Of a DNA stretch of 44,645 nt, positions 4,974-19,238 are shown one piece after another. Under the pieces are notes generated by a model. That model saw only the letters and a list, made by a program, of their open reading frames with translations, made no database searches and was not told the DNA's origin. The stretch is from an uncultured Alphaproteobacteria bacterium (GTDB taxonomy: Bacteria > Pseudomonadota > Alphaproteobacteria > Rhodobacterales > Rhodobacteraceae): assembly GCA_902611475.1 (NCBI GenBank), contig CACLZW010000012.1:1-44645 (forward strand), given 5' to 3'. The translations under genes were made by a program, and so were the position numbers. Within the stretch, counting starts at the first letter, position 1, and each line of letters starts with the position of its first letter.

Positions 4974-5363
4974 TTGTATGAAATGAAAAATATTAACGCC
5001 GCTACACAATACAAAAAAACCGACCAGATGGAAATCGCTCAACCGGATGCGAACTCCATTTTAATAAAATGCTTTGACGAACTTATAAAATCAATGAAAA
5101 TTTTTCAAAATAATATTGTACCCAATACCGAAAATTTTAGAAAAAAATCCTCCAGTTTTTCTCGTGCATTGACAATTTTATATTCGTTGCAGTCTAGCGT
5201 AGACTTTGAAAAAGATATTAATATTGCGAAGAGCCTTTTCCAAGTATACGAATATACTAGAGTTAGTTTAATAGAAGAGTTTAAAAGCTGTAAGGTAAAT
5301 AAGAGCATAAATGCCTTGACCGCTTTGGTAGAAATCAGAGATAGTTGGAAGTCAATCAGCTAA
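4974..5363 (+). CDS. fliS: Flagellar export chaperone FliS, second copy
   Basis: A 129-aa FliS paralogue. FliS features are the N-terminal NAATQYKKT segment, where the family has an A-x-x-x-Y motif, a helix with SILIKCFDELIKSMKIF, the central SRALTILYSLQSSVDFEKD and the C-terminal EIRDSWKSIS. The start may be ATG 4974 or ATG 4983 (MKNINAATQY); neither has a clear Shine-Dalgarno. It is followed by a fliT-like gene and faces the divergent 146-aa gene. In Pseudomonas aeruginosa two fliS-type genes (fliS, fleP) stand directly before fleQ, and the arrangement here is the same except that four genes separate the two copies. It probably binds a different flagellin or subunit from the first copy. Confidence 0.8.
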   Translation: MYEMKNINAATQYKKTDQMEIAQPDANSILIKCFDELIKSMKIFQNNIVPNTENFRKKSSSFSRALTILYSLQSSVDFEKDINIAKSLFQVYEYTRVSLIEEFKSCKVNKSINALTALVEIRDSWKSIS

Positions 5364-5374
5364 ATTTAATTACT

Positions 5375-5665
5375 ATGCAAACCCATTTAGGCAAAATAAA
5401 ATCTTTACAGAGCAAGATAGAGGCCGCTTTGAAGGATAGCGACTTTGAAAAACTAGCAAACTTATCAACTGAGTTAACGAGTTCTGTTGAAGATCTAGTT
5501 AGCAATTCCATTTATAAAAAGAACATCACAGAAAGCGAATTGGTTGATCTTCAAAGTTTACTTTCTAGTGTTGAAAAATATCAAGAAATAACGTCAACAA
5601 AATTTAAGGCTTACACCACAAAGGTTTCCCGCAACCAAAAAATGCAAAAGGCCTATAAACAATAA
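5375..5665 (+). CDS. FliT-like flagellar chaperone
   Basis: A 96-aa helical, charged protein directly behind fliS. Size, coiled helices and position fit FliT-type chaperones, which bind the filament cap FliD and in enterics also modulate gene regulation. Sequence in this family diverges fast, so the call rests on position and composition. ATG 5375 is preferred: an upstream in-frame TTG at 5345 would overlap fliS by 19 bases without a ribosome-binding site. The C-terminus is very basic (TTKVSRNQKMQKAYKQ), unusual for a chaperone otherwise rich in Glu and Ser. It converges with fleQ, leaving five bases between the stop codons. Confidence 0.55.
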   Translation: MQTHLGKIKSLQSKIEAALKDSDFEKLANLSTELTSSVEDLVSNSIYKKNITESELVDLQSLLSSVEKYQEITSTKFKAYTTKVSRNQKMQKAYKQ

Positions 5666-5670
5666 AACAG

Positions 5671-6750
5671 CTAACTTTTGTTAGAAATCCCGTATTTTTT
5701 CATTTTCTCGATCAATGTAGTTCTTCTTAATTTCAGAGCATCGGAGGCTTGACTTACCATTCCGTCTGTTTTTTCTAAAGCGGCTTCAATCATTACAATC
5801 TCAATCTCGCTTAGATGCCTTCTCAAATCCATTTTATCAAAATACAGAAACCAATCCTTGTATTGTTCAGGTTTGGGAATGGGTAAGCTAGAGATCTCCT
5901 CATCTTCGTTTTTGTTAACAACCTCTACCAAATCCGTCGATGCAGCCCATAACTCATCTTGTTCCTCATCAGGATCAGGAACTTTTAATCTTAATAGGTT
6001 TTCTTTAACATTATTTCCAGATACGGTTCTGTCGCTAAATAACACAGATGCTCTCTCAATTACATTTCTTAACTCTCTGACGTTACCCGGCCAACTATAG
6101 TTAGATAAAACCTTTAGCGCATCGTCACTAAAGTTTACGTTTATTTTCTGTCCAGAAAACTTAATTTTTTCCAAAATTCCCTGTATTAGGATCGGAACAT
6201 CTACAATTCTGGCCGCTAGATTTGGTACCTCTATGGGAAATACATTAATCCTGTAGAAAAGGTCCGCTCTAAATTCCCCTTTTTCTACTTTTTTATCTAA
6301 GTCTTGATGTGTCGCGCATACCAAACGAAAGTCAACATCAATTTCTTTACTAGAGCCTACTCTTTGTATCTTTCTACCCTCCAACACTCTCAATAATTTT
6401 GATTGCAAAGGCAAAGGCATATCCCCTATCTCATCTAAAAATATCGTTCCATGATTGGCTTGCTCAAACCTCCCAGCTCTCGCGCGATCTGCTCCGGTGA
6501 AAGCTCCTTTTTCATGTCCAAAAAGCTCCGATTCTAGTAGCTCTGAAGGAATTGCTGCACAATTAACTGAAATATTATTTCCTGTTCTTCCAGAAGCTAC
6601 ATGTAGAGCCTCTGCAACTAATTCTTTACCGGTACCCGTTTCCCCTTGAATTAAAACAGTGGTATTTGAGGAAGAAACCATTTCAATGAGTTTTTTCATT
6701 TCCTTGATAACTAAAGAGTTTCCTAAAATGATTTCTTCAATCGCCTGCAT
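5671..6750 (-). CDS. fleQ: Sigma-54-dependent flagellar master activator, FleQ-type
   Basis: A 359-aa bacterial enhancer-binding protein consisting of an AAA+ domain and a Fis-type helix-turn-helix. Walker A is GETGTGKE (36-43), the sigma-54 contact loop GAFTGA is at 82-87, Walker B FLDEIGD at 104-110, and the arginine-rich end of the ATPase includes WPGNVRELRNVIERA. The C-terminus (about 310-356) ends in RRTTLIEKMKKYG, the form typical of FleQ/FlrA rather than of other activators. The N-terminal regulatory domain of Pseudomonas FleQ (roughly 130 residues) is absent, and an acidic linker (258-290) joins ATPase and DNA-binding domain. It is divergent from the HTH-less activator gene at 6982, and two FleQ-box-like inverted repeats lie between them. 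It probably acts with that partner on the flagellar sigma-54 promoters listed here. Confidence 0.85.
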   Translation of the reverse strand: MQAIEEIILGNSLVIKEMKKLIEMVSSSNTTVLIQGETGTGKELVAEALHVASGRTGNNISVNCAAIPSELLESELFGHEKGAFTGADRARAGRFEQANHGTIFLDEIGDMPLPLQSKLLRVLEGRKIQRVGSSKEIDVDFRLVCATHQDLDKKVEKGEFRADLFYRINVFPIEVPNLAARIVDVPILIQGILEKIKFSGQKINVNFSDDALKVLSNYSWPGNVRELRNVIERASVLFSDRTVSGNNVKENLLRLKVPDPDEEQDELWAASTDLVEVVNKNEDEEISSLPIPKPEQYKDWFLYFDKMDLRRHLSEIEIVMIEAALEKTDGMVSQASDALKLRRTTLIEKMKKYGISNKS

Positions 6751-6768
6751 TTATTATTTTCCTATTTT

Positions 6769-6782
6769 GTCAATATTTTAAC
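6769..6782. promoter_or_regulatory. FleQ-box-like inverted repeat, site 1
   Basis: GTCAATATTTTAAC has the form GTCAA-N4-TTGAC with one mismatch. From memory, the P. aeruginosa FleQ consensus is GTCANTAAATTGAC, of the same length and symmetry. It lies 18 bases upstream of the fleQ ATG, where binding could repress fleQ itself. Inferred from pattern only. Confidence 0.45.
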
Positions 6783-6820
6783 TAATACTAGCATGGCAAG
6801 AGAAAAAATATAGTGGAAAA

Positions 6821-6834
6821 GTCAATTTTTTGAA
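6821..6834. promoter_or_regulatory. FleQ-box-like inverted repeat, site 2
   Basis: GTCAATTTTTTGAA has the form GTCAA-N4-TTGAC with one mismatch in the last base. It lies about 103 bases upstream of the -24 element of the FleT-like gene, the usual distance for an upstream activating sequence of a sigma-54 activator. The run AAGTCAA[T/C]TTTTTGA is shared with the site before fliO. Confidence 0.5.
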
Positions 6835-6936
6835 CCTTCTATTTCTAAAAAAACTGACCTATATCAAAAATAAAATTTCACAAAAAATATAATAAATTCA
6901 ATACATTAATCATAAAATGAATGTAAAATAAGCATT

Positions 6937-6952
6937 TGGCCTATTTTTTGCC
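6937..6952 (+). promoter_or_regulatory. Sigma-54 promoter of the fleT-like/fliEFGHIJ operon
   Basis: TTGGCCTATTTTTTGCC has GG at 6938-6939 and GC at 6950-6951 with exactly ten bases between, and a full TTGC block. The expected transcript start, about 6963, gives a 19-base leader carrying AAAGGAGA just before the ATG at 6982. Confidence 0.75.
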
Positions 6953-6981
6953 TTTATTGAGGTGTCAAAGGAGACCAAGGT

Positions 6982-8172
6982 ATGTTAAATGTTATAATTG
7001 AAGATCAGGGATTACGCTCTGCAATAAAGTTAAAGAAAATTTTGGAAGACCGACGAGCGATTGTTGAATTTTCAAAAGAGAAAGTTGCATCGCAAGACAA
7101 GCACCTACCACATAGGGCATCTGAAATTTGTTTTATTTGCTCAGAAGATTTTTCTAGTTCTAATAAGGGACCAGCTGGTTTAATAGAAGTCGCAAAAAGC
7201 TACAAAGCTAGCTCAATCGTAGTTATCAGTCAAACAGATGACGCTTTTTCTCTCAAGGAAGATTTAGGTGGAAAACTTTTGTATGTAAATCTTCCTGATT
7301 GTAACGAAGCTGACGACACTACTAATGATTATGGTTTTCAAATCATTGCAACCTTGGTAGCAAGGAATAATCAATTTATTGCAGGAGATCAGAACACTAA
7401 GAATTTGGTGCAGCTTGCCGACAAAGTGGCAAAAACAGATGTTACAGTTTTTATAAATGGGCCAACTGGTACCGGCAAAGAAGTTCTGTCGAAGTTTATT
7501 CATAAAAATTCCTCAAGATGCGATAGTCCATTTGTGGGAATAAACTGTGCAGCTATTCCTGAGAATATGCTCGAGGCAATATTATTTGGCCATGAGAAAG
7601 GTGCGTTTACAGGTGCTTCTAACCCGAATAAGGGGATTTTTAGAGCCGCAGACGGTGGAACATTACTTTTAGATGAAATAAGTGAAATGCCCCTTAGTCT
7701 ACAAGCAAAATTACTCAGAGTTCTGCAGGAGAAAATAGTAACACCCATCGGTTCGCAAAAAGATTTATCGGTGGATGTAAGAGTTATAGCTACTACTAAC
7801 AGAAATATGCTTGAAGAAATTAAAAAAGGAACTTTTAGAGAAGATCTCTATTATAGACTAAATGTTTTTCCTCTTGCCACTTCACACCTAATTGATAGGA
7901 AAAACGATATTATCCCCTTAACAACAGCCCTACTATATCGACATTGTAAATCAGTTGATGAACTTCCTTGGCTTAATACATCTGCGCTGGAAACTTTATT
8001 AGAGCATAGCTGGCCAGGGAATGTTAGAGAACTGGAAAATATCATACAAAGAGCCTTGGTTCTTTGTACAGAAAAAGAAATTAGTTCAAATGATATTGTT
8101 ATCGACAACAACCCTTTGAACATTTCAACAAATTCTGTAACTGATGAAAACACACAACAGCTAGCAATTTGA
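6982..8172 (+). CDS. Sigma-54 activator without DNA-binding domain, FleT/FlbD-like
   Basis: A 396-aa enhancer-binding protein. Residues 1-130 form a receiver-like region resembling that of Caulobacter FlbD but without an evident phospho-acceptor aspartate at the end of the third strand (EICFICSEDF). The AAA+ domain has Walker A GPTGTGKE (160-167), GAFTGA (207-212), Walker B LLLDEI (228-233) and WPGNVRELENIIQRA. The protein stops about 30 residues after the ATPase, so the Fis-type helix-turn-helix found in FlbD, FleQ and FleR is missing. The next gene starts 8 bases after the stop, leaving no room for a frameshifted domain. In Rhodobacter sphaeroides, FleT likewise heads the fliE operon, lacks DNA binding and works with FleQ; this gene's place and build match that. 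A strong ribosome-binding site precedes ATG 6982. It is first gene of the fliE-fliJ operon. Confidence 0.8.
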   Translation: MLNVIIEDQGLRSAIKLKKILEDRRAIVEFSKEKVASQDKHLPHRASEICFICSEDFSSSNKGPAGLIEVAKSYKASSIVVISQTDDAFSLKEDLGGKLLYVNLPDCNEADDTTNDYGFQIIATLVARNNQFIAGDQNTKNLVQLADKVAKTDVTVFINGPTGTGKEVLSKFIHKNSSRCDSPFVGINCAAIPENMLEAILFGHEKGAFTGASNPNKGIFRAADGGTLLLDEISEMPLSLQAKLLRVLQEKIVTPIGSQKDLSVDVRVIATTNRNMLEEIKKGTFREDLYYRLNVFPLATSHLIDRKNDIIPLTTALLYRHCKSVDELPWLNTSALETLLEHSWPGNVRELENIIQRALVLCTEKEISSNDIVIDNNPLNISTNSVTDENTQQLAI

Positions 8173-8180
8173 GGTTTTAA

Positions 8181-8495
8181 ATGTCCCAGATAGGATCCAT
8201 AACAAATAAAGTATTATCTAATCATAAGCAGATCATTGAAAGGACAAACAATACGTTAGGCAATGATAACAGTACTGGAAATTTTAGTGCAAAAATGGAG
8301 AAAGCTCTCGACTCAGTGGCAGATGCACAAAAAATCGCTGCTGATACAACACGGAACTTTGAGCTTGGCTTAGAAAATGACTTAACAAAAGTAATGATTA
8401 ATCAACAAATATCGTCATTAGGTTTTCAATTAACACTTAATACAAGAAATAAAGTGCTTTCAGCATATAAAGATATTATGAGCATGCCCGTCTAA
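8181..8495 (+). CDS. fliE: Flagellar hook-basal body protein FliE
   Basis: A 104-aa FliE, the adaptor between the MS ring and the rod and the first protein exported by the flagellar secretion system. The diagnostic C-terminal segment is present: NKVLSAYKDIMSMPV, with the preceding QQISSLGFQLTLNTR. The N-terminal half is variable, as usual for the family. It starts 8 bases after the HTH-less activator gene and 21 bases before fliF, so it is cotranscribed with both from the sigma-54 promoter at 6937. Confidence 0.9.
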   Translation: MSQIGSITNKVLSNHKQIIERTNNTLGNDNSTGNFSAKMEKALDSVADAQKIAADTTRNFELGLENDLTKVMINQQISSLGFQLTLNTRNKVLSAYKDIMSMPV

Positions 8496-8516
8496 TCAAA
8501 TTTAAAGGTATAAATT

Positions 8517-10235
8517 ATGGCAGATACAACAGAATTCACTGGTACACAGCAAGCACAGCAAGGAACGGGTTTAATTCCACAAGCTGGTCAATTTCTATCC
8601 AATGTTCAACAGATAGCTAACCAACCCAGTGTTCAAAGGTCATTGCCCGCTGTAATTGCCGTCATAGTTTTAGCACTGGGATTATTTGTTTACTCACTTT
8701 TACAGCAACCTGAAAGAACAACTCTTTATGCATCTCTACCTGATTCCGAGAAATCAAAAGTACAAGACGCACTGAAGAACCTTGGTGTCGATGTGAGTCT
8801 AGACCCCACCACAGGTGAAATACTTGTACCTGTTGAAGATTACCACCGGTCTAGGATAAGTTTGGCAGCTCAGGGATTGCCTAGTAGCGCCCCTGATGGT
8901 TATTCAACATTAACAGACTTACCAATGGGCTCTAGTAGGTCCGTAGAGCTTATGAGGCTTAAACAAACTCAGGAAATTGAGCTTGCAAAATCAATTAGAG
9001 AAATTGAAGGGGTCATTTCAGCTCGAGTTCATTTAGCACTTCCAGAAAAATCGGTCTTTGTAAGAAATCAACTACCCCCTACCGCATCAGTATTCGTTCA
9101 GCTACCAAACGGAAGATCGATGGCAAGTGGGCAAGTAAATGCTATTATTCACTTGGTATCATCATCAATTCCCAATATGACAAAGGAAGATGTGACCGTT
9201 ATTGATCAAAATGGTAAACTTCTATCAAAATCTTTAGATGACCCAGACAGCATGCTAAACGATGCACAATTAGAACACAGAGTGAAACTTGAAAATATTT
9301 ACAGAAGCCGTATCACATCCTTAGTAACCCCGATCGTTGGGCCAGGAAATGTGAGCACTCAAGTCAATATTGATATTGATTTTACAAAGAGTGAGATAAC
9401 GGAAGAGATAGTCGATCCTGATGGTACAGCGCTTAGAAGTGAGCAAAGTACTTTAGATTTAACTACAGATTTACCAGCAAAAGGCATTCCTGGTGCAGTG
9501 TCAAACACTGCTCCCACTGAGGCAGAACTAAGCCAAACACCTGTAGCTGGGGACTCCCAAGGGCAAATAAGAAATAGGTCGTCTAGCGATATCAAAAATT
9601 ATGAAGTAAGCAAGCGAATAGCTACCACAATGGCTCCATCAACAAAAATAATTAAAATTAATGCTGCTGTACTTCTGAGAAGTCCTAAAGCTATTGATCC
9701 TGAAACTGGGTTGGAGATTTCTCAGCCTTTATCTGATGAGAAAATTGAGGAGATCAAAGAGTTAATTACGAGCGCAGTGGGTATTGATGAAGAGAGAGGT
9801 GATAAGCTTACAGTAAGCAGTGCTCCTTTTATATCAACTCTTGAGGGAGTGGAAGTTACCTGGCATGAAATCCCTCTAATAAAAAACTTAATAAAACAAC
9901 TCATAACAATTTCTATATTGGCTATTGTAGCGCTCGGAGTAATAAGGCCGCTGTTAAGCAGGATGCTTGTACCAGTTGGATCAGGAGTTGCCGGCGAAAT
10001 TGTATCCGGAATGGATGATGACATAGATCTAGATACAATTGAAGTGAAAGAAGGTGAAAGCTTAGAAGATATAAAAGCTAAGCTAAAACCCAAAAAGCAA
10101 GCTATTTCTGCTGAAATGCTTGATACAGCAAATACCTATGACGACAAAGTCGCAGTTATAAGAATGATTGTACAAGATGAGTCCGGTCGAGTTTCAAACG
10201 TGTTTAAAAACATGATACAAAGAGATATGAATTAG
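8517..10235 (+). CDS. fliF: Flagellar MS-ring protein FliF
   Basis: A 572-aa FliF, which forms the membrane and supramembrane ring on which the motor and export gate assemble. The first membrane segment is at residues about 43-62 (PAVIAVIVLALGLFVYSLL), followed by the ring-building motifs with the conserved LPEKSVFVRN, and the second at about 460-480. The cytoplasmic tail carries the FliG-binding end (DDKVAVIRMIVQDESGRVSNV). Length is normal for the family. The ATG stands behind a weak purine stretch. It sits between fliE and fliG in the classical order. Confidence 0.95.
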   Translation: MADTTEFTGTQQAQQGTGLIPQAGQFLSNVQQIANQPSVQRSLPAVIAVIVLALGLFVYSLLQQPERTTLYASLPDSEKSKVQDALKNLGVDVSLDPTTGEILVPVEDYHRSRISLAAQGLPSSAPDGYSTLTDLPMGSSRSVELMRLKQTQEIELAKSIREIEGVISARVHLALPEKSVFVRNQLPPTASVFVQLPNGRSMASGQVNAIIHLVSSSIPNMTKEDVTVIDQNGKLLSKSLDDPDSMLNDAQLEHRVKLENIYRSRITSLVTPIVGPGNVSTQVNIDIDFTKSEITEEIVDPDGTALRSEQSTLDLTTDLPAKGIPGAVSNTAPTEAELSQTPVAGDSQGQIRNRSSSDIKNYEVSKRIATTMAPSTKIIKINAAVLLRSPKAIDPETGLEISQPLSDEKIEEIKELITSAVGIDEERGDKLTVSSAPFISTLEGVEVTWHEIPLIKNLIKQLITISILAIVALGVIRPLLSRMLVPVGSGVAGEIVSGMDDDIDLDTIEVKEGESLEDIKAKLKPKKQAISAEMLDTANTYDDKVAVIRMIVQDESGRVSNVFKNMIQRDMN

Positions 10236-10277
10236 ACTTGATTAAAAGTAGAATAAGATAGCGTGTAGGAATTAAAT

Positions 10278-11312
10278 ATGGCTGAGCAAGAAAAAGAAGA
10301 TAAAACTAAGGTTTTTGATAAACTTACTGGAACGCAGAAATCAGCAATATTGATGATGCTTTTAGGCGAGGATGAGGCTTCAGAAATCCTTAAAAATTTA
10401 ACACCGAAAGAAGTTCAACACCTTGGTAGCGCAATGTATTCCGTTGAAGGATTAGACCAAGATACCGTTAACAAAGTACTGGATGAGTTTCTTGCAATTA
10501 TTAAGGAACAAACAAGCCTAGGATTAGGTGCAGGAAATTACATTCAAAATGTTTTAAACAAAGCTCTTGGACAGGATAGAGCACAATCTATTTTGGGACG
10601 TATTACACCATCGGAAAGCAATAATGCCATTGAAATATTAGAGTGGATGGACTCAAGAGCTATTGCCGAATTGATACAAGATGAGCACCCACAGATCATC
10701 GCTCTCATAATTTCTTATCTTGATCCTGCTCAAGGCTCTGATGTTCTTGTTATGCTTGATGAGAAAATACAACCAGAAATTGTCAAAAGAATAGCTACAA
10801 TACAAACAGTCCAACCGGACGCATTGAGAGACTTAGAGGTAGTAATGCAGAAGAAATTTGCAGCCAATACTTCTCTCAGAGCTTCCCAAGTTGGGGGCGT
10901 AAAGGCTGCTGCGCAAATAATGAACTTCATGAAAGGTGAGGATGAACAAAAAATATTCAAAGAGGTGGCAAAGTTTAGCAAGAATCTGATGACTGAGATT
11001 CAAGAAGCGATGTTTGTATTTGATAACCTTATTAAATCTGATGATAAATCGCTACAGATGATATTGAGAAGTGTTGAAACTGAGGATTTAGTTCTAGCAA
11101 TGAAGGGAGCAGATGAGGTATTAAGAGATAAGTTATTCAGCTGTATGTCTCAGAGAGCAGCAGCCAATATACAAGATGAAATGGAAGCTTTGGGCCCAGT
11201 TCGTTTGACTGAAGTTCAGGAAGCTCAAAAGCGAATAATTAATGCTGCTCGAAGAATGTCAGATGAAGGCACTATAGTCCTAGCTGGCCGGGGTGGAGAT
11301 GACTACGTTTAA
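10278..11312 (+). CDS. fliG: Flagellar motor switch protein FliG
   Basis: A 344-aa FliG, the rotor protein that touches the stator and converts ion flow into torque. The N-terminal domain binds FliF, the middle domain has the EHPQ motif (about 136-139, EHPQIIALIISYLDP) and the C-terminal domain holds the charged helix facing the stator (DDKSLQMILRSVETEDLVLA). Length is normal. An AGGAA stretch precedes the ATG. It is followed 19 bases later by fliH. Confidence 0.95.
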   Translation: MAEQEKEDKTKVFDKLTGTQKSAILMMLLGEDEASEILKNLTPKEVQHLGSAMYSVEGLDQDTVNKVLDEFLAIIKEQTSLGLGAGNYIQNVLNKALGQDRAQSILGRITPSESNNAIEILEWMDSRAIAELIQDEHPQIIALIISYLDPAQGSDVLVMLDEKIQPEIVKRIATIQTVQPDALRDLEVVMQKKFAANTSLRASQVGGVKAAAQIMNFMKGEDEQKIFKEVAKFSKNLMTEIQEAMFVFDNLIKSDDKSLQMILRSVETEDLVLAMKGADEVLRDKLFSCMSQRAAANIQDEMEALGPVRLTEVQEAQKRIINAARRMSDEGTIVLAGRGGDDYV

Positions 11313-11331
11313 GAGATATTAGAATTTACAT

Positions 11332-12228
11332 ATGCAACCGTTAGAAGAAAAAGATAGTTCGCCATTAGAGGATACAGAAATAACGAGACTGATAAAGGTT
11401 TCAAGGGAACTCGGCTATAAAAAGCAAGATAAAATACCTGAAAGAAACTTAGATCATTTCAAACCAATATCTATTACTCAGATCGCTTCATCTTCAGATC
11501 ATAAAGCACAACAACCTATTGATGGCTCAGAGAACAAAGACTTAAATAAGAATGTGATTGAGGAAAAAGCTAGTACCGGTGATAACTTGCCACCAGATAT
11601 GCAAAATGAAGAAACCTTTGATACTGATCCCAACTTGCAAAGCACAAATGAGCAAAAAGAAATAAGTGACCCCCTTGACGATACATCAACTACTAGATCA
11701 GAAACCTCAGCAACTTCTTTGGAACCAACCACACCTTCTTCAGTATCCCACAAATTAGAAAGAGAGGATACATCAAGTGACAATGGCACTGAGGCTGACT
11801 CAACTCAAGGCACAGACGCTGAAAAAGATCCTGTTAAAGAGGCATCAATTGTTCCTACACGACAAAATGAAACTTATAGTATAGAAGAGGCCAAACAAGA
11901 GGGTATAGAAATTGGAAAAAAAATTGCATTTACAGAACTTGAAAATAAACAGAAAGAGGCACTAGAAGCTTTCCAAGTAATCATAGACAATATAAAGAAC
12001 AAAGAGACAGTCGATAAAACTGATCTTACTGAATCAATTTTGAGAGTAATAACGAGACTTGCCAGTGAACGAGCGGGAGCCATGATAGATGAGTGCTCCG
12101 ATACCTTTAAAAACAAAATAATTTCATTTGCCGATAAGGTTGAACAGGCATCAAAAAAACTTAATACTGAATTTAAATCCGATAGATGCAAACTTACTTT
12201 CAAAATCGCTCTCCGAATCTCTGATTGA
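11332..12228 (+). CDS. fliH: FliH, N-terminal and central part (reading frame broken by a one-base frameshift)
   Basis: This frame holds the first part of FliH, the cytosolic protein that holds the export ATPase FliI and ties it to FliN. Residues 1-60 are an ordinary N-terminus; about 60-180 is a long acidic, Ser/Thr-rich disordered stretch; from about 184 come the FliH helices (EEAKQEGIEIGKKIAFTELE, then SILRVITRLASERAGAM). At 12153-12159 there is a run of seven A's. After it this frame reads out-of-family residues and stops at 12228, while the next frame continues as good FliH (12155-12472). With six A's instead of seven the two parts join into one 379-aa protein with the sequence SKNLILNLNPIDA at the junction. 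The cause may be sequencing error, real mutation or polymerase slippage. Confidence 0.8.
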   Translation: MQPLEEKDSSPLEDTEITRLIKVSRELGYKKQDKIPERNLDHFKPISITQIASSSDHKAQQPIDGSENKDLNKNVIEEKASTGDNLPPDMQNEETFDTDPNLQSTNEQKEISDPLDDTSTTRSETSATSLEPTTPSSVSHKLEREDTSSDNGTEADSTQGTDAEKDPVKEASIVPTRQNETYSIEEAKQEGIEIGKKIAFTELENKQKEALEAFQVIIDNIKNKETVDKTDLTESILRVITRLASERAGAMIDECSDTFKNKIISFADKVEQASKKLNTEFKSDRCKLTFKIALRISD

Positions 12229-12472
12229 TAAGAAAGTAGAAATAAGAGAGAACTCTGAGCTATTCCGGGGAGATTTTATTTTTCAAATGGGAGCAGTGGA
12301 AATAGGAGACCTCATTTCAGAGCAAATTTTGATTTTAGATAAAGAGAAAGAAGCCACTGAAGAAAGTAACAAGTCTGGGATAGAAAGCGAGGAAGTTAGA
12401 TTGGCGGATAAAGAAGCACCCCAGAAAACAGAAAAAGAAAGTATGTCAGAGATTGATAATGATAAAAAATAG
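12128..12472 (+). CDS. fliH: FliH, C-terminal part (shifted frame)
   Basis: The second half of the broken fliH. From about 12155 it reads as the conserved C-terminal domain that binds FliI: LILNLNPIDANLLSKSLSES, then LFRGDFIFQMGAVEIGDL, corresponding to the family pattern of 'v.I..NP.D...l' and 'l..G.c.ve...g.vD'. The open frame begins at a TTG (12128), but residues before 12155 do not look like FliH and no ribosome-binding site precedes it, so independent translation is unlikely. The tail is an acidic, lysine-rich extension. Its last 14 bases overlap the fliI ATG at 12459. Confidence 0.7.
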   Translation: MPIRLNRHQKNLILNLNPIDANLLSKSLSESLIDKKVEIRENSELFRGDFIFQMGAVEIGDLISEQILILDKEKEATEESNKSGIESEEVRLADKEAPQKTEKESMSEIDNDKK

Positions 12473-13787
12473 TTCGGTTTCACTAACTAAAGCTATAGAT
12501 AGCATAAACTTATCAGGCAAATTAACTACTTCTGGACGGGTCCATAAATATGATGGTCATTTCTTGGAGTGCGATGGGTTTCCAGCAAATCTAGGCTCTA
12601 TCTGCTCCGTAGCCACATCGGATGGAACTGAAACATTAGCGGAAATAATAGGTTTTAAAAAAGGTAATAATATTCTGTCCATGTTTGAAAGTGATACTAA
12701 AATTCAATCAGGGGCAAAGGTTTGTGTAATTGATGAAGGTCACGATATTGAAGTTGGAGAAGCATTATTGGGGAGAGTTATCGACGCGATGGGAAACCCC
12801 TATGATGGGAAACCAATGGGTTCATTAAGAGAAACATGGCCATTAAATGGAAAATTTTTGAACCCCTTATCTAGAAACCCCGTTAACAAGCCACTTGACG
12901 TAGGAGTAAGAGCTATAAATACCTTGTTGACCGTAGGCAAAGGACAAAGATTAGGTATTATTGCTGGATCCGGAGTTGGAAAGTCTGTTTTACTTGGAAT
13001 GATGTGCAGATATACGGAGGCAGAAATAGTTGTTGTTGGACTTATTGGAGAGCGAGGTCGGGAAGTAGGCAGTTTTGTAAAAAATATACTTTCTGGAGAT
13101 GCAAAGGATAAAACAATAGTAGTTGCGGTACCTGCTGATAGATCCCCATTACTTCGAATTAGAGGCGCTAATAGAGCCACAGCGATAGCAGAGTATTTTA
13201 GATCCATAGGAAAGAATGTACTACTTATAATGGACTCCCTAACCAGGGTTGCGCATGCAAGACGAGAAATTGGCCTAGCGCTAGGCGAGCAACCAACAGC
13301 AAAAGGATATCCACCCTCCGTAGTATCACTGATACCAAAGCTTATAGAAAGATCAGGTCCGGGCATTGATAAGCAAGGATCAATAACGGCATTTTATACA
13401 GTTTTAGCCGATGGTGATGATGAGAATGATCCGGTAGTTGATACTGCCAGGGCAATTCTTGATGGACATATTGTATTATCAAGACAGCAAGCGCAGTTAG
13501 GCATTTACCCTGCTATTGATGTATCGAGCTCGGTCAGTCGGGTAATGAATGAAATAATTGACGAAACGCACAGTGAATACGCACGTGTATTTAGGAAGCT
13601 AATTACTCTTTATTTGGACAATAGAGACCTTATTTTAATGGGTGGATATACGCAAGGAAAGGACCCAGACCTTGATCTAGCAGTTTCTCTTTGGCCAAAC
13701 CTAACAGCTCATATTCGCCAACTAGAGGGGACAGCATCTAACTTTCAAGATAGTAAAGCTAGTCTGCTCCAATTATTAAAGGGTTAG
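12459..13787 (+). CDS. fliI: Flagellum-specific export ATPase FliI
   Basis: A 442-aa FliI, the hexameric ATPase of the flagellar type III export system, related to the F1 beta subunit. Walker A AGSGVGKS is at residues 169-176; the Walker B strand VLLIMDSLTRVAHARREIGL and the following LGEQPTAKGYPPSV block are typical for the family. ATG 12459 is chosen over an in-frame TTG six bases earlier. It overlaps the end of fliH by 14 bases, consistent with coupled translation, so the frameshift in fliH could also reduce FliI synthesis. The following fliJ starts six bases after its stop. Confidence 0.93.
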   Translation: MIKNSSVSLTKAIDSINLSGKLTTSGRVHKYDGHFLECDGFPANLGSICSVATSDGTETLAEIIGFKKGNNILSMFESDTKIQSGAKVCVIDEGHDIEVGEALLGRVIDAMGNPYDGKPMGSLRETWPLNGKFLNPLSRNPVNKPLDVGVRAINTLLTVGKGQRLGIIAGSGVGKSVLLGMMCRYTEAEIVVVGLIGERGREVGSFVKNILSGDAKDKTIVVAVPADRSPLLRIRGANRATAIAEYFRSIGKNVLLIMDSLTRVAHARREIGLALGEQPTAKGYPPSVVSLIPKLIERSGPGIDKQGSITAFYTVLADGDDENDPVVDTARAILDGHIVLSRQQAQLGIYPAIDVSSSVSRVMNEIIDETHSEYARVFRKLITLYLDNRDLILMGGYTQGKDPDLDLAVSLWPNLTAHIRQLEGTASNFQDSKASLLQLLKG

Positions 13788-13792
13788 ACTTT

Positions 13793-14206
13793 ATGCCATT
13801 AAAGAAAAATATCTTCGATCGCCTCTCTCTAAAAAAGAAAATCAATCTAAGTCGGCAAAATAAAATATCAGAGCAACTGTCAAGTGAATCTGAAAAAAAT
13901 GCAAATCTTATTGAACAAATAAAAGATTTGCAGAGCCAAAGGGTTGTGGACAACTCCACACTTAGATCTGGATATTTTCTTAAATCTCAAAATTGGTACT
14001 CACAAAAATTGATTGAAGAACTTAATCAAACAGAGACAAAACAGAAATTTATTAAAAAAGAGCTTGCGGAAATTCAAAAAAAAATTGCTATTGAACACCA
14101 AAATATGAAACGAGCTAAAACAAAAGCCGCTGAAAAAAGAAAAAAAGAAGTTTCTTTGCTTGAGACCAAGAAAGAACTCATGACCCCCAAAATAAATAAA
14201 CTTTAA
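13793..14206 (+). CDS. fliJ: Flagellar export protein FliJ (coiled coil)
   Basis: A 137-aa, strongly charged, coiled-coil protein directly after fliI. FliJ is the central stalk of the export ATPase and escorts unloaded chaperones; its sequence is poorly conserved, so the call rests on length, helical character (residues about 20-130 without proline) and position. A weakly FliJ-like motif LRSGYFLKSQNWYSQKL lies in the middle. The gene ends 57 bases before fliK; the spacer holds a new sigma-54 promoter, so fliJ is probably the last gene of the fliE operon. Confidence 0.75.
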   Translation: MPLKKNIFDRLSLKKKINLSRQNKISEQLSSESEKNANLIEQIKDLQSQRVVDNSTLRSGYFLKSQNWYSQKLIEELNQTETKQKFIKKELAEIQKKIAIEHQNMKRAKTKAAEKRKKEVSLLETKKELMTPKINKL

Positions 14207-14220
14207 GCACGTATGAACTA

Positions 14221-14237
14221 TTGGCACCTATTTTGCA
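14221..14237 (+). promoter_or_regulatory. Sigma-54 promoter of the fliKLMN operon
   Basis: TTGGCACCTATTTTGCA is close to consensus, with GG at 14223-14224 and GC at 14235-14236 separated by ten bases. The predicted transcript start, about 14248, gives a 15-base leader that includes an AGGAA ribosome-binding site before ATG 14263. Confidence 0.8.
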
Positions 14238-14262
14238 AAGTTGCCTATAGGAATAGGCTTAT

Positions 14263-15678
14263 ATGACAGAAATAGTAAGAAATAATAATAGTATTAAATT
14301 AGACATTCTAGATATGGGTAATGTTGGTTCAGATCAATCAGAAAGTGAGAGTGTTTTTAATTCTTTATTTGGCGGCATAGATGCAAAGGATAATACTGAA
14401 GTGCTATCCAACAGTATAAATATTGATGACATTGACCAGGCTGACAGGAATATGACCGAAATTATCAACATTCTTAAAATGGCCGACATAAACTTATCGG
14501 AGGATATTTTAGAGGACATCCAAAATAAATTAAAAGAGTTATTTGAGGAAATAAATATTGGTGGACTCGGGCTTGCTAATAGTGACTTGGAATTTTCAAA
14601 TAACTCAGGCAATGAAAACTTCGTTCACATAATGAAATTTCTACAGGAACTAGAAAATTTGATTAATTCAAATCAGAGAGGTAAAGATGTACATCAAAAG
14701 CTCGAAATAATCTTGGATCAAGTAAGAACAAAGCTCAATGAACAAGTCAAAAAATCTATTGGGACGAAAAATAAGGCACAAGATGCAACCAAAAATGACA
14801 CCAAACTTGTACTGCAAGAGCAAAAGAACAATTCGGTAAGCAATAAACAAATTGTTCATAAAAAAACCGACTTAGGTGTAGTTGGGACAAATCCAAATGA
14901 AATAGTTGCGCCTGAATTAAAAAAGTCTGACTTAGCTTTTGCAAAGACGGCTGTTGAATTCAAGACTAGAAAAAAACTATCATCCAAAGCAGATTCTTTA
15001 AATGCTTCTCAAGGTTTAGAAAAAAAAGCAGGCCCATCCAAAAATATAGGAAATAAGATTTCTGAATTTAAGACGGATGCTTTAACTCAGACCTCAACAA
15101 ATACAAATCATTCAAAAGATTTAAATCTTGAAAGCAATTTAGCGAGACAACCTCTAGCATTTACAAACAAATTAGATACAGTTTCAAATGTGGTGTCAGC
15201 TAATACTCAGAACCCTTCCCTATTTAATCAAGAGAGTAATGATAAATTACTACAAAACTTAAATATGTTGTCAAAAAGCTGGGGAAATAAGCTTATAGAA
15301 AAAATAGAAAAATCTATCATAGACGGTGTCGAGGAGATAGAGATATCATTGACCCCAAAAAGTCTGGGTAGACTGAATGTTACGATTAACATGCAAGATA
15401 CGATAGCTAAGATAAGTATTATTACTGAAAGCGCTAACGCCGCTACTATCCTATCAGATGCAGAATCTAAATTATCCCAAATGATGGAAGTTTCTGGACT
15501 GAAGCTAGCATCACTTCAAACGCAAGCTAATCAATTTGGAGGAAATCAAAAAGGAAAAGAGCGCACCCATAAGCTTGCTTCAACAGTAAAAAAGACTAAT
15601 ATCGAAGGCAGCTCAAGGCCAATGGAAGATGTAAACAAAATAAATAGTAAAAATGAGGGTCTTAACCTCATAGCATAA
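14263..15678 (+). CDS. fliK: Flagellar hook-length control protein FliK
   Basis: A 471-aa FliK, the secreted molecular ruler that measures the hook and switches the export gate from hook to filament substrates. The first 350 residues are hydrophilic, repetitive in Asn/Lys/Ser and poorly conserved, as in all FliK proteins. The C-terminal substrate-switch domain is clear at about 355-425: EISLTPKSLGRLNVTINMQD and ILSDAESKLSQMMEVSGLKL. It is the first gene behind its own sigma-54 promoter and is followed by fliL after 16 bases. Lack of cysteine and high Asn/Lys content suit an unfolded export substrate. Confidence 0.88.
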   Translation: MTEIVRNNNSIKLDILDMGNVGSDQSESESVFNSLFGGIDAKDNTEVLSNSINIDDIDQADRNMTEIINILKMADINLSEDILEDIQNKLKELFEEINIGGLGLANSDLEFSNNSGNENFVHIMKFLQELENLINSNQRGKDVHQKLEIILDQVRTKLNEQVKKSIGTKNKAQDATKNDTKLVLQEQKNNSVSNKQIVHKKTDLGVVGTNPNEIVAPELKKSDLAFAKTAVEFKTRKKLSSKADSLNASQGLEKKAGPSKNIGNKISEFKTDALTQTSTNTNHSKDLNLESNLARQPLAFTNKLDTVSNVVSANTQNPSLFNQESNDKLLQNLNMLSKSWGNKLIEKIEKSIIDGVEEIEISLTPKSLGRLNVTINMQDTIAKISIITESANAATILSDAESKLSQMMEVSGLKLASLQTQANQFGGNQKGKERTHKLASTVKKTNIEGSSRPMEDVNKINSKNEGLNLIA

Positions 15679-15694
15679 AAAAAGGACGGGCAAA

Positions 15695-16270
15695 ATGGCA
15701 GAAGAAGAGAAAGAAGAAGAACCTAAAAAAGGTGGCCTAATGAAAATTATAATGATGGCTTTAGGAGCTATTGCTTTGATTGGCGTAGGCGTAGGAACTG
15801 GATATTTTTTATTCGGTGGTAAGCCTGCTGATCCCTCAGCAGAAATAGAAGAAATAATTGAAAGAAAAATGAAGGAGGCCGAAGAAGCAAAAGCCGCAGA
15901 AGAAGCGGCAAATTCAGGCCCGCAAAAAAAGGAAGCTCCAGAGGTGGAGAAGTTTATCACCACTTATTACGAGTTCCCAGGTAACTTTACAACAAACTTG
16001 AGAGGCTCAAGAAAATTTTTGCAAGCTGGAATTGGGGTGTCTACACAATATGATGAAAACGTAATAAATAATGTGGAAGATCATCAATTATCGTTAAGGT
16101 CAAGCATTTTGGCCGTTATGAGCGAATTTTCTGAGCAGGATATTGAAGGTAAATCAGGAAGAGATGCACTAGCAAAAGCTATTGCAGCAGAATTAAACAC
16201 AAAATTAGAGGCATTAGAAGGATTTGGGGGCATTGAGAATGTTCATTTCACTTCCTTTATGCTTCAATAA
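15695..16270 (+). CDS. fliL: Flagellar basal body-associated protein FliL
   Basis: A 191-aa FliL, a single-pass inner-membrane protein that surrounds the stator and supports its activity under load. One membrane helix is at residues about 14-40 (IIMMALGAIALIGVGVGTGY), after an acidic cytoplasmic N-terminus. A Glu/Ala/Lys-rich linker follows, then the periplasmic domain (TYYEFPGNFTTNLRGSRKFL and later LRSSILAVMSEFSEQDI) resembling the stomatin-like fold reported for FliL. An AAGGAC ribosome-binding site precedes the ATG. It lies between fliK and fliM. Confidence 0.9.
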   Translation: MAEEEKEEEPKKGGLMKIIMMALGAIALIGVGVGTGYFLFGGKPADPSAEIEEIIERKMKEAEEAKAAEEAANSGPQKKEAPEVEKFITTYYEFPGNFTTNLRGSRKFLQAGIGVSTQYDENVINNVEDHQLSLRSSILAVMSEFSEQDIEGKSGRDALAKAIAAELNTKLEALEGFGGIENVHFTSFMLQ

Positions 16271-16289
16271 TTAGAGATCGAGAGCTTAA

Positions 16290-17267
16290 GTGGTATCATC
16301 AAGAAAATTATCTAGTGAAGAAGTTGACGCATTAATTGAGGGTTTGCAGTCCGATGAGAATGGAAGCTCATCATCCTCCGATGTATCAGAAGCTGCAAAC
16401 GTCAGACCCTATAAGTTTGGGTCAGATGAGCTATCATTACTCGGAGATTATTATGCTCTTAGGCTTGTTAACGAAAGATTTGCTCGACAAGCTCGAAGCG
16501 TTTTCCTTCCAATGCTAAGAATACTCCCCCGAATATCCTCGTTTCCCCCCGAAGTAAAAACATTTGATGAGTACTCTTCTGGAATCGAGAGTTTTATGAG
16601 TTTAACTTCAAACAGACTAGAAGAACTTAGAGGGAATATGTTGCTGGTTATGGATCCAAACTTCATATCAATTCTGACTAATTCGTATTATGGTGGGCAA
16701 ATTGAAGCGATAAAAGAAAAAAGGTCTGAATTTACCAGTACCGAAGAGCGCTTAATAGAAATCGTATCAGAAGGTCTTAATAGGATGCTTGAAAAAGCAT
16801 GGTATGATCTAATGCCAATCACTCTTACTGAACAGAGTAGAGAGGTAAACCCTCAATTTGCATCGTTTGTCGATAATGCAGAAATGGTCATTATATGTTC
16901 ATTTGTAGTTCAATTGCCAGGTGTTGACGCAGCAACTTTTGATATAATCTATCCTCTACAAACACTCAAACCTATTGCCTCACAGCTTAGATCAAGAGTT
17001 CAAAGTGAAGTAATCGATGATGATTTTACATGGAAAGAAAAACTAGAACGGATGGTAATGGAGATCCCTTTAAATGTCAGTTGCCGCTTGAGTGAGCCAA
17101 CTGTACCAATGAATAAATTACTCCAGACTAAAACAGGCGATACCTTTCCTATATATGTGGGTGAAGGCATTGAAGTATTAATTGAAGATCAATTAGTATT
17201 TCTCAGTGAACTAGGAGAACTCTCTGGGCAAGCTGCAGTAAACATAAAGAAGAGACTAAGTAAATAA
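16290..17267 (+). CDS. fliM: Flagellar motor switch protein FliM
   Basis: A 325-aa FliM, the C-ring subunit that binds phosphorylated CheY and sets the direction of rotation. The N-terminal CheY-binding peptide is recognisable as LSSEEVDALIEGL (family form LSQ.EIDALL). The middle domain and the SPOA/FliN-like C-terminus (about 245-320) follow. GTG at 16290 is the only sensible start, since it places the CheY-binding peptide at residue 7 as in homologues. It follows fliL by 19 bases and precedes fliN. Presence of this peptide implies chemotaxis control, though no che genes lie in the window. Confidence 0.93.
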   Translation: MVSSRKLSSEEVDALIEGLQSDENGSSSSSDVSEAANVRPYKFGSDELSLLGDYYALRLVNERFARQARSVFLPMLRILPRISSFPPEVKTFDEYSSGIESFMSLTSNRLEELRGNMLLVMDPNFISILTNSYYGGQIEAIKEKRSEFTSTEERLIEIVSEGLNRMLEKAWYDLMPITLTEQSREVNPQFASFVDNAEMVIICSFVVQLPGVDAATFDIIYPLQTLKPIASQLRSRVQSEVIDDDFTWKEKLERMVMEIPLNVSCRLSEPTVPMNKLLQTKTGDTFPIYVGEGIEVLIEDQLVFLSELGELSGQAAVNIKKRLSK

Positions 17268-17283
17268 CATATGGGGTTATGCA

Positions 17284-17625
17284 ATGGGCGAAGAAGAGAA
17301 TATAGAAGAAAAAACTGAAGAGCAATCAGCTAATACAGAAGATAAAGCTCAGAATTCTGCTTCTGCAGACAATCTTCGAGTTTTAGAAAATATCGATGTT
17401 AGACTCACCGTTGAAGTAGGAAGCGCTGAGCTAAAAATTAAAGAGTTACTAAGACTAAATGAAGGATCAGTTATAGAACTAGACCGTCTAGCAGGAGACC
17501 CTTTAGATATATTAATCAATGGAACAATGATAGCCAAAGGTGAAGTAGTGATGGTTGGGGAAAGATTTGGGATAAGGTTTGTTGAGATCGTAGATCCCCA
17601 GAAAAGAATTGAAAGCGTCAAATAA
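17284..17625 (+). CDS. fliN: Flagellar motor switch protein FliN
   Basis: A 113-aa FliN, the lower C-ring subunit, which also docks the FliH-FliI complex. After an acidic N-terminus of about 35 residues comes the SPOA domain with the typical VRLTVEVGSAELKIKELL, GSVIELDRLAGDPLDILING and GEVVMVGERFGIRFVEIV. Length is normal. It ends the fliK operon: a hairpin with a T run follows, and the next promoter stands before fliO. Confidence 0.95.
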   Translation: MGEEENIEEKTEEQSANTEDKAQNSASADNLRVLENIDVRLTVEVGSAELKIKELLRLNEGSVIELDRLAGDPLDILINGTMIAKGEVVMVGERFGIRFVEIVDPQKRIESVK

Positions 17626-17629
17626 TTAA

Positions 17630-17643
17630 GTCAACTTTTTGAC
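17630..17643. promoter_or_regulatory. FleQ-box-like inverted repeat before fliO
   Basis: GTCAACTTTTTGAC is a perfect GTCAA-N4-TTGAC palindrome, extended to AGTCAA/TTGACT. It lies 65 bases upstream of the -24 element of the fliO promoter, a normal activator distance. It could also fold as an RNA hairpin just after fliN, so the same bases may have two uses. Confidence 0.55.
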
Positions 17644-17648
17644 TATTG

Positions 17649-17671
17649 AGAGAGAAAAACTCTTTTTTTTT
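17649..17671 (+). terminator. Probable terminator after fliN
   Basis: A short stem AGAG (17649-17652) with CTCT (17660-17663) is followed by an unbroken run of nine T's. The stem is weak alone, but together with the preceding GTCAA/TTGAC hairpin it marks the end of the fliK-fliN transcript. Confidence 0.45.
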
Positions 17672-17707
17672 CTTATAAAAACATACTGATAAAGAAAATA
17701 AATCCTT

Positions 17708-17723
17708 TGGCATGATACTTGCC
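17708..17723 (+). promoter_or_regulatory. Sigma-54 promoter of the fliOPQR-flhB operon
   Basis: TTGGCATGATACTTGCC has GG at 17709-17710 and GC at 17721-17722, ten bases apart, with good TGGCA and TTGC blocks. The expected start, about 17734, gives a 15-base leader made almost wholly of the ribosome-binding site AAAGGAGGT. Confidence 0.8.
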
Positions 17724-17748
17724 TTTTCTATTTGGAAAGGAGGTACAT

Positions 17749-18171
17749 ATGCAGGTTCAAGATATAAGCTTAACTCAGATAGTTGTTGTATTACTATTTT
17801 TAGGTACTCTTATTCTGTTACAACAGTTACTGAAGAATAATAAGTTCAATTTCCAGGATCGTTTGAATAAAAAGAAAAGGATGATCTTGATTGAAGAGTT
17901 TACACTGAGTAACTCTGAGCGAATTAGATTAATAAGGGTTGATGGTTCAGATTACCTTTATTGCTCTGCAAAAGGATCCTCGCCAACAATTATTCCTCAT
18001 CAAGGCAAGGATATAAATAGCATTAAACAAAATGTAGAGCTTAAAAAACTCGTTAGAGACAAGCACGAAGATACAGGCAATGAGAGAGAACAAAAGGGCA
18101 CGCCCAATATATTGTCAGCTGCAATATCTAACGCGCGAAAGATGAACCCAAAATTAGGTTTAAAGAGATGA
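17749..18171 (+). CDS. fliO: Flagellar export protein FliO
   Basis: A 140-aa FliO, which helps assemble the FliP ring of the export gate. One membrane helix near the N-terminus (about 9-27, TQIVVVLLFLGTLILLQQLL) is followed by a basic cytoplasmic domain with EEFTLSNSERIRLIRVDGSD, the FliO-type core, and a disordered tail. ATG 17749 is preferred over a start 30 bases upstream because a perfect AAAGGAGGT lies 5 bases before it and the earlier start would precede the predicted transcript start. It overlaps fliP by four bases (ATGA). Confidence 0.85.
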   Translation: MQVQDISLTQIVVVLLFLGTLILLQQLLKNNKFNFQDRLNKKKRMILIEEFTLSNSERIRLIRVDGSDYLYCSAKGSSPTIIPHQGKDINSIKQNVELKKLVRDKHEDTGNEREQKGTPNILSAAISNARKMNPKLGLKR

Positions 18172-18947
18172 AGTTCAAAGCAAAAATAATACTATTAATA
18201 CCAGCCCTATTTATATCTCTTTTCGGTACCGCAGCCTTAGCACAAAATGGCCTATCAAGTTTTGCAGATGGCCTTCCAGCTTTAAAAATTGAAAGCAATG
18301 GAGAGGCTGAAACAACCTACTCATTATCCCTACAGATCCTTGCATTGATGACTGGATTGACCTTGCTTCCTTCAATAGTGCTTGGAGCGACTTCCTTCAC
18401 AAGAATAATAATTGTTCTCTCGATCTTAAGACAGGCAATGGGAACACAACAAACACCACCAAACCAGGTTTTGATAGCAATAGCTCTTTTTTTAACATTT
18501 TTTATAATGACGCCGACACTCACGGAAATAAATAGAACTGCCCTTGATCCATATCTCGAAGGAGATTTGCCTGCAAAGTCTGCGCTGTCAACTGGTTCAA
18601 ATACTTTGAAAGAATTTTTGGTTAAAAATACTCGGGAAAATGATTTATCGATGTTTACGGATTTAATAGGAGATCAAGGATATGAGGATCACAAAGACAT
18701 ACCATTGACCGTTATACTTCCAGCTTTCATCACATCCGAGTTGAAAACTGCTTTTCAGATAGGGTTTCTACTTTTTCTTCCATTTTTAGTTATAGATATG
18801 GTAATCGCCTCGATATTGATGTCTTTAGGAATGATGATGCTTAGCCCAATGCTAGTAGCTCTTCCTTTTAAGCTTCTTCTATTTGTCTTAGTTGATGGTT
18901 GGGCAATGACAGTAGGATCATTGGTCGCAACATATGTTTCAAACTAA
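18168..18947 (+). CDS. fliP: Flagellar export gate protein FliP
   Basis: A 259-aa FliP, five copies of which form the core of the export channel with FliQ and FliR. A signal peptide is visible (residues 1-25, ending TAALA), as in other FliP proteins. Family blocks are present: TSFTRIIIVLSILRQAMGTQ, PPNQVLIAIALFLTFFIMTP and, near the end, DMVIASILMSLGMMMLSP and LVDGW. Length is normal. Four-base overlap with fliO shows translational coupling; fliQ follows. Confidence 0.95.
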   Translation: MKFKAKIILLIPALFISLFGTAALAQNGLSSFADGLPALKIESNGEAETTYSLSLQILALMTGLTLLPSIVLGATSFTRIIIVLSILRQAMGTQQTPPNQVLIAIALFLTFFIMTPTLTEINRTALDPYLEGDLPAKSALSTGSNTLKEFLVKNTRENDLSMFTDLIGDQGYEDHKDIPLTVILPAFITSELKTAFQIGFLLFLPFLVIDMVIASILMSLGMMMLSPMLVALPFKLLLFVLVDGWAMTVGSLVATYVSN

Positions 18948-18962
18948 AAAGGGAGCTCCAAG

Positions 18963-19235
18963 ATGGAATTTGATACTAACGTAAATTATCTAGAAGATGC
19001 TTTTTGGCAAATTATAATTTCCGCAGGTCCAGTGCTGATAGTGGCGCTTGGCATAGGCCTTTTGATTGGTATAATTCAGGCAGCTACTTCTATTAACGAA
19101 ATGACCTTAAGTTTTGTGCCAAAGTTAGTGCTGGTTCTTCTGACATTGGCTTTGATCTCTAACTTTATGTTAACCGGACTGACAGATTATTTTGCTTTTA
19201 TTTTTGATCAAATAGCCTCGATTGGTCAAGCATAG
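18963..19235 (+). CDS. fliQ: Flagellar export gate protein FliQ
   Basis: A 90-aa FliQ with two membrane helices (about 14-38 and 52-72). The family pattern is clear: AFWQIIISAGPVLIVALGIG, LLIGIIQAATSINEMTLSFVPK. It wraps around the FliP-FliR core of the export gate. An AGGGAGCT ribosome-binding site precedes the ATG. It lies between fliP and fliR with tight spacing. Confidence 0.95.
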   Translation: MEFDTNVNYLEDAFWQIIISAGPVLIVALGIGLLIGIIQAATSINEMTLSFVPKLVLVLLTLALISNFMLTGLTDYFAFIFDQIASIGQA

Positions 19236-19238
19236 TAT

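What the first reader, a model, noticed from the sequence alone, without database searches (positions are those of the whole stretch)
12150..12165. fliH broken by one extra base in an A7 run
The first frame (11332-12228) carries FliH up to TCA at 12151-12153, then leaves the family and stops. The next frame from 12155 continues as good FliH C-terminal domain. Seven A's occur at 12153-12159; six would give one continuous 379-aa protein. In AT-rich genomes RNA polymerase slippage on A-runs is known to rescue such genes (shown for insect endosymbionts), so this could be a sequencing error, a motility-off variant, or a gene made functional by slippage. The overlap of fliH with fliI means the frameshift could also affect FliI.
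Basis: partly seen in the sequence, partly recalled or inferred. Interest (0 to 1): 0.75.

Follow-up and report, generated by a model that had tools for sequence, protein, structure and literature searches.

The report
Isolated frameshift in a flagellar gene
In one ocean bacterium's incomplete genome the flagellar export gene fliH loses its reading frame in a run of A's that is one base longer than in its nearest relative; most likely this is a lone recent slip or a laboratory-stage error, not a gene read by a special mechanism.

Summary
FliH starts at 11332, loses its frame in the A7 run at 12153-12159 and stops at 12228; the rest of the FliH domain lies in another frame up to 12472. All 11 other congeneric genomes that hold the locus have one open frame there; the nearest has A6. 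Constraint is equal on both sides (dN/dS 0.116 and 0.109), so the change is young, unreal, or rescued.

Rescue by RNA polymerase slippage is unlikely: A7 is short, and slippage of the deletion type was not seen on A-runs in E. coli (PMC6260861). In 254 kb of this genome (187 checkable ORFs, 226 A/T runs of 7 or more) fliH is the only real frameshift found. A -1 ribosomal shift leads to the wrong frame, and no good internal start exists.

Verdict: an isolated homopolymer indel, about evenly an amplification/assembly error of a probable single-cell genome or a true young mutation. A reversible motility switch is not excluded; fliH of L043 and fliJ of L097 break at A8 runs. Reads are needed. Interest is low.

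The parts
10278..11312 (+). fliG, intact, upstream neighbour
   Evidence: Pfam FliG_N/M/C; 98.8% aa identity to G020
11332..12228 (+). first part of fliH: conserved N-terminal box, variable linker, first half of the FliH domain, then about 23 residues out of frame and a stop
12153..12159 (+). run of seven A's where the frame changes; G020 has six here
12128..12472 (+). second-frame ORF; from about 12152 it carries the rest of the FliH domain and the variable tail
   Evidence: Pfam FliH E 7e-5; 84.7% aa identity to G020 FliH over 111 aa
12459..13787 (+). fliI, intact; its ATG overlaps the end of fliH by 14 bases

Best explanation
An isolated one-base length change in an A-run of fliH, found in a single genome, with no decoding mechanism behind it. 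It is either an error of whole-genome amplification or assembly (about 0.48) or a true, very young replication-slippage mutation in the sampled cell's lineage (about 0.40). If true, the cell makes a FliH truncated in the middle of its C-terminal domain; FliI binding by that domain (recalled) would be lost, FliI translation might drop if it is coupled to fliH, and flagellar export would be weakened. Shown: the frameshift, its absence from the congeners held, equal constraint on both sides, its isolation in the part of the genome surveyed. Inferred: single-cell origin, loss of function, effect on motility.
For: 11 of 11 congeners with the locus keep one open frame across the spot. Among 64 further named loci looked at, no break was seen at this position; two break elsewhere in fliH. 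dN/dS against G020 is 0.116 in the core before and 0.109 in the core after the break. Polarised non-synonymous changes in the core after the break: 2 in the window lineage, 1 in G020; a Poisson bound puts any loss of constraint within about the last 40% of the window branch (about 50% if 3 changes). Sixteen other genes of the cluster have dN/dS 0.00-0.32. In 254,276 bases of this genome fliH is the one real frameshift among 187 checkable ORFs and 226 A/T runs of 7 or more (the other flagged spot is a start over-extension). Kin are named as single isolates AG-xxx, which I recall as single-cell names.
Against: Short-read assemblies seldom err at A7 (recalled), and the rest of the surveyed sequence is clean, which argues somewhat against artefact. 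The constraint on fliH argues somewhat against a lasting true loss. Similar breaks exist in fliH of L043 and fliJ of L097, both at A8 runs, so a recurrent cause in these genes is not excluded.
Confidence: 0.88

Rival explanations
1. Reversible motility switch: the A-run slips back and forth in replication, so that part of the population has fliH off (contingency locus, as for A/T tracts in Campylobacter flagellar genes).
For: Precedent: a reversible adenine-tract indel in C. jejuni fliR, and indels in 7-8 base tracts of flgS, flgR, flhB and fliP (PMC7677240, passages). fliH is rich in A-runs: 196 runs of A>=7 in 75 ORFs (83 kb) against 778 in 826 other ORFs (767 kb). The three frameshifts at A-runs found all hit fliH or fliJ.
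Against: The tract is not conserved: congeners have interrupted or different runs at this spot. A7 is ordinary here (61 A7 runs in 97 ORFs). mutS is found in 19 of 22 and mutL in 18 of 22 genus genomes, so no repair defect of the genus is shown. One genome per species is held, so variation within the species could not be seen. The excess in fliH/fliJ rests on three events in stretches chosen around fliI and was not tested formally.
Confidence: 0.07
2. RNA polymerase slippage on the A7 run restores the frame in part of the mRNA, and fliH is functional.
For: The downstream half is still under constraint. Slippage rescue is reported for Blochmannia and Buchnera (PMC3017870, passages, citing Tamas 2008, which I did not read). 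Long A-runs are not depleted in the genes of this genome that were counted, so they are at least tolerated.
Against: E. coli RNA polymerase gave no detectable slippage on fewer than eight A's and no deletion on the A-runs examined (PMC6260861, passages); rescue here needs slippage of the deletion type or a double insertion, and a single insertion does not lead to the FliH frame. Transcription insertions prevail at homopolymers, and no frame-restoring case was detected in E. coli or Buchnera (PMC5574713, passages). A lineage with efficient slippage should show many frameshifted runs; 1 of 226 is seen. Baranov et al. [quoted passage not shown] here A>=9 runs are 16 against 15.3 in synonymous shuffles.
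Confidence: 0.04
3. Two separately translated proteins, or programmed ribosomal frameshifting, make the C-terminal half.
For: A AAA AAA resembles a -1 slippery heptamer (sequence; motif recalled).
Against: A -1 shift leads to the third frame, not to the FliH frame. Frame-2 starts before the domain are TTG 12128 and TTG 12140, the latter with AAGG directly against the start; the next is ATG 12287, deep in the domain. All 11 congeners with the locus encode one ORF.
Confidence: 0.01

Closest known systems
Homopolymer indels in Campylobacter jejuni flagellar genes (PMC7677240, passages)
   Same: Single-base change in an A/T tract of 7-8 bases in a flagellar export gene
   Different: There reversal and loss of motility were shown; here one genome, no reads, no phenotype
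Frameshifted but possibly rescued genes of Blochmannia and Buchnera (Tamas 2008, not read; cited in PMC3017870, passages)
   Same: One indel in an A-run, gene otherwise intact
   Different: There several genes per genome (eight in B. vafer), some frameshifts shared between lineages, one named tract of 11 A's; here one gene in the surveyed part, A7, not shared by congeners
Spontaneous fliH mutant of Borrelia hermsii (PMC3757020, passages)
   Same: Natural frameshift and early stop in fliH
   Different: 142-bp deletion, with loss of motility shown

Membership tests
FliH (flagellar export protein) | Pfam FliH domain and place between fliG and fliI | tested here: met
   Second ORF E 7e-5, 23.2 bits against a cut-off of 24.1; 8 of 8 intact congeners given (of 11) match PF02108; gene order fliE-F-G-H-I. 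Against: NCBIfam gives no hit to either half, and only 24 bits against a cut-off of 180 for G020's intact protein
FliH (flagellar export protein) | one continuous reading frame | tested here: not met
   met in 11 of 11 congeners with the locus
Slippage-rescued gene | A-run long enough for bacterial RNA polymerase slippage, in the right direction | tested here: inconclusive
   A7 with deletion-type slippage needed; in E. coli the threshold was eight A's and no deletions were seen on A-runs (PMC6260861). The organism's own polymerase was not tested
Slippage-rescued gene | frameshift kept across related lineages | tested here: not met
   0 of 11 congeners
Slippage-rescued gene | mixed run lengths in mRNA and full-length protein | not testable with these tools
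   no RNA or protein data
Phase-variable homopolymer locus | run length varies between cells of one species | not testable with these tools
   one genome per species held
Phase-variable homopolymer locus | tract conserved as a repeat in relatives | tested here: not met
   interrupted or of varied length in congeners
Programmed -1 ribosomal frameshifting | shift leads into the conserved frame | tested here: not met
   a +1 (or -2) shift would be needed

The most novel reading that the evidence does not exclude
Marine SAR116-like alphaproteobacteria use A-run slippage in the lysine-rich cytosolic export proteins FliH and FliJ as a cheap, reversible motility switch; the window, L043 (fliH, A8) and L097 (fliJ, A8) would be cells caught in the off state.
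Probability: 0.06. Interest if true: 0.55.

Novelty: already known. Interest (0 to 1): 0.15.

Why it matters
As it stands it is a caution: single frameshifts in draft genomes of uncultured cells need read support before they are called loss of motility or hidden decoding. If population reads showed mixed run lengths, it would make motility switching testable in an abundant kind of uncultured marine bacterium; I did not search whether that has been described for this group.

Tried and rejected
Slippage rescue, -1 frameshifting and a separate C-terminal gene: see rivals.

Ongoing loss of flagella in the genus is not settled. FliF is found in 12 of 22 genomes and FlhA in 14 of 22; 6 FlhA-positive genomes lack FliF and 4 FliF-positive ones lack FlhA, which fits incomplete genomes. 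Against that, both genomes rated at least 90% complete (G002, G007) lack FliF and a close fliI, and G007 lacks FlhA too, so true loss in some congeners is not excluded. This did not change my odds.

Mutator by loss of mutS: no mutS hit in this genome, but two genes near mutS in G011 are not found either (those searches had no positive control), so the region may simply be missing; mutL is present and runs off a contig end. A PDB sequence search with 8 congener FliH proteins gave no FliH structure. Paper searches on single-cell indel rates and on this marine group gave no usable figures. The upstream-core polarised count failed (one outgroup not found) and is not used.

Survey flags judged not real after inspection: L095 (antisense); and one in G000_C1, two in G020 (C8, C47), one in G011_C1 (53631) and one in G008_C4, all start over-extensions of the query. 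The G020_C10 flag mirrors the window's own break. Judged real: the flagellin-like gene of G011. L075 was not flagged. Dropped rows: 6 of the 80 named loci (L059, L060, L061, L072, L082, L083) were left out because little sequence lies before fliI (L060 has 602 bases, slightly more than L049, which I kept).

Full report
Identity. The window is contig 12 of a 1.59-Mb, 64-contig genome, 62% complete. Its close kin are records named 'uncultured Alphaproteobacteria bacterium isolate AG-xxx' (some titled 'MAG') and, further off, mostly SAR116 cluster and other marine alphaproteobacterial records. I recall such AG names as marine single cells, so single-cell origin of the window is inferred, not shown. 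Region 4974-21201 is mainly a flagellar cluster: FliS, two sigma-54 activators, FliE, F, G, H, I, a protein in the FliJ position, FliK, L, M, N, P, Q, R and FlhB; MotB/MotA and RpoN follow.

Observation. The frames and the A7 run are exactly as reported. The nearest relative, G020, has a 379-aa FliH in one frame whose Pfam FliH domain covers residues 210-325; the window's break corresponds to about residue 274, inside the domain.

Relatives. Twelve of 22 genus genomes, the window's own included, hold a close fliI (86-100% identity). In the 11 others fliH is one open frame across the break (nine seen, L006 and L010 after turning the strand; L005 begins at a contig end). At the spot the relatives read A6 (G020, L007), interrupted runs, A7 (L010) and A8 (L011), in frame. 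72 of 74 gave one FliH ORF and two gave two: L043 (break in the variable linker, with an A8 run in the overlap) and L075 (GC-rich; its title shows a coverage of about 3). Some of the 72 are cut by contig ends, and for some only part of the protein is shown as matched, so a break in an unmatched part could have been missed.

Selection. Against G020, dN/dS is 0.116 in 92 core codons before the break and 0.109 in 59 core codons after it; the region before the core has 0.468 and the tail 0.84. Sixteen other genes of the cluster have 0.00-0.32. Changes in the core after the break: window lineage 2 non-synonymous and 4 synonymous, G020 1 and 2, one not polarised. A simple Poisson model gives P = 0.04 for 2 or fewer changes if constraint had been lost for 40% of the window branch, and P = 0.047 for 3 or fewer at 50%. 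So the frameshift is recent, unreal or without effect; the model cannot say which.

How isolated is it? In four stretches of this genome (254,276 bases, about 16% of what is held; 176,315 coding bases matched by kin), 187 ORFs (the two fliH ORFs among them) and 226 A/T runs of 7 or more could be checked; fliH is the only real frameshift. In the fetched parts of six congeners, 385 ORFs and 458 such runs could be checked, with one broken gene, a flagellin-like gene in G011 split over three frames. In 82 loci around fliI (967,248 bases, 901 ORFs), four spots were flagged with support from at least two other loci: the window's fliH, L043 fliH, L097 fliJ at an A8 run, and one in L095 that is antisense and rejected. 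Runs of A are not avoided in the 97 genes counted: A7 61 against 43.9 +/- 5.2 in synonymous shuffles, A8 13 against 15.6 +/- 3.3, A>=9 16 against 15.3 +/- 2.7. Long runs are common and, where checkable, nearly all in frame.

Mechanism. Rescue by transcription would need slippage of the deletion type or a double insertion; a single insertion does not lead to the FliH frame. E. coli RNA polymerase showed no detectable slippage below eight A's and no deletion on the A-runs examined (PMC6260861, passages). Insertions prevail at homopolymers in E. coli and Buchnera, and no frame-restoring case was detected there (PMC5574713, passages). These are other organisms, so the argument is strong but not final. 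A -1 ribosomal shift leads to the wrong frame, and internal starts are poor. In Salmonella, loss of FliH and FliI can be bypassed by second-site changes or raised flagellar gene expression (PMC4905995, passages), so a cell with broken fliH need not be wholly without flagella.

Genus background. Flagellar genes are patchy among the 22 genomes. Most of the patchiness fits incomplete genomes, but both genomes rated at least 90% complete lack FliF and a close fliI, so loss in some congeners is possible. mutS and mutL are found in most of the genus (19 and 18 of 22).

Verdict. An isolated homopolymer indel. I split it about 0.48 for artefact and 0.40 for a true young mutation, with 0.12 for a switch, slippage or other decoding. 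The split between the first two rests on judgement: I found no usable single-cell indel rates (PMC5519541, passages, points to supplementary material that I could not see).

Noticed in passing
L043 5041-5200 (SAR116 isolate AH-287-O21): fliH is split in two frames in its variable linker; the overlap holds an A8 run.
   Followed up: partly
L097 6657-7048 (SAR116 isolate AG-335-B03): The gene after fliI (fliJ position) is split in two frames at an A8 run.
   Followed up: partly
L005 about 1000-1026 (G017): The variable tail of FliH ends in another frame than in G011, by a one-base difference just before fliI; probably harmless.
   Followed up: no
G011:C1:126562-126933 (L141), G021:C1:201908-202279, G019:C5:24264-24635, G017:C8:24523-24693: Flagellin-like matches carry internal stops in four congeners, while the match at G000:C1:94665 is open (G011 copy also).
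   Followed up: partly
window 11332-12150: FliH has a conserved N-terminal box of about 50 residues, then a fast-changing linker of about 130 residues before the core.
   Followed up: no
window 5671-6750 and 6982-8172: Two sigma-54 activators beside the cluster: one begins almost directly with the AAA domain, the other shows no HTH domain in Pfam.
   Followed up: no
window and G000:C6, 97 ORFs: A7 runs are more frequent than in synonymous shuffles (61 against 43.9 +/- 5.2).
   Followed up: no
G002 and G007 (whole genomes): The two most complete congeners lack FliF and a close fliI, yet have flagellin matches.
   Followed up: no
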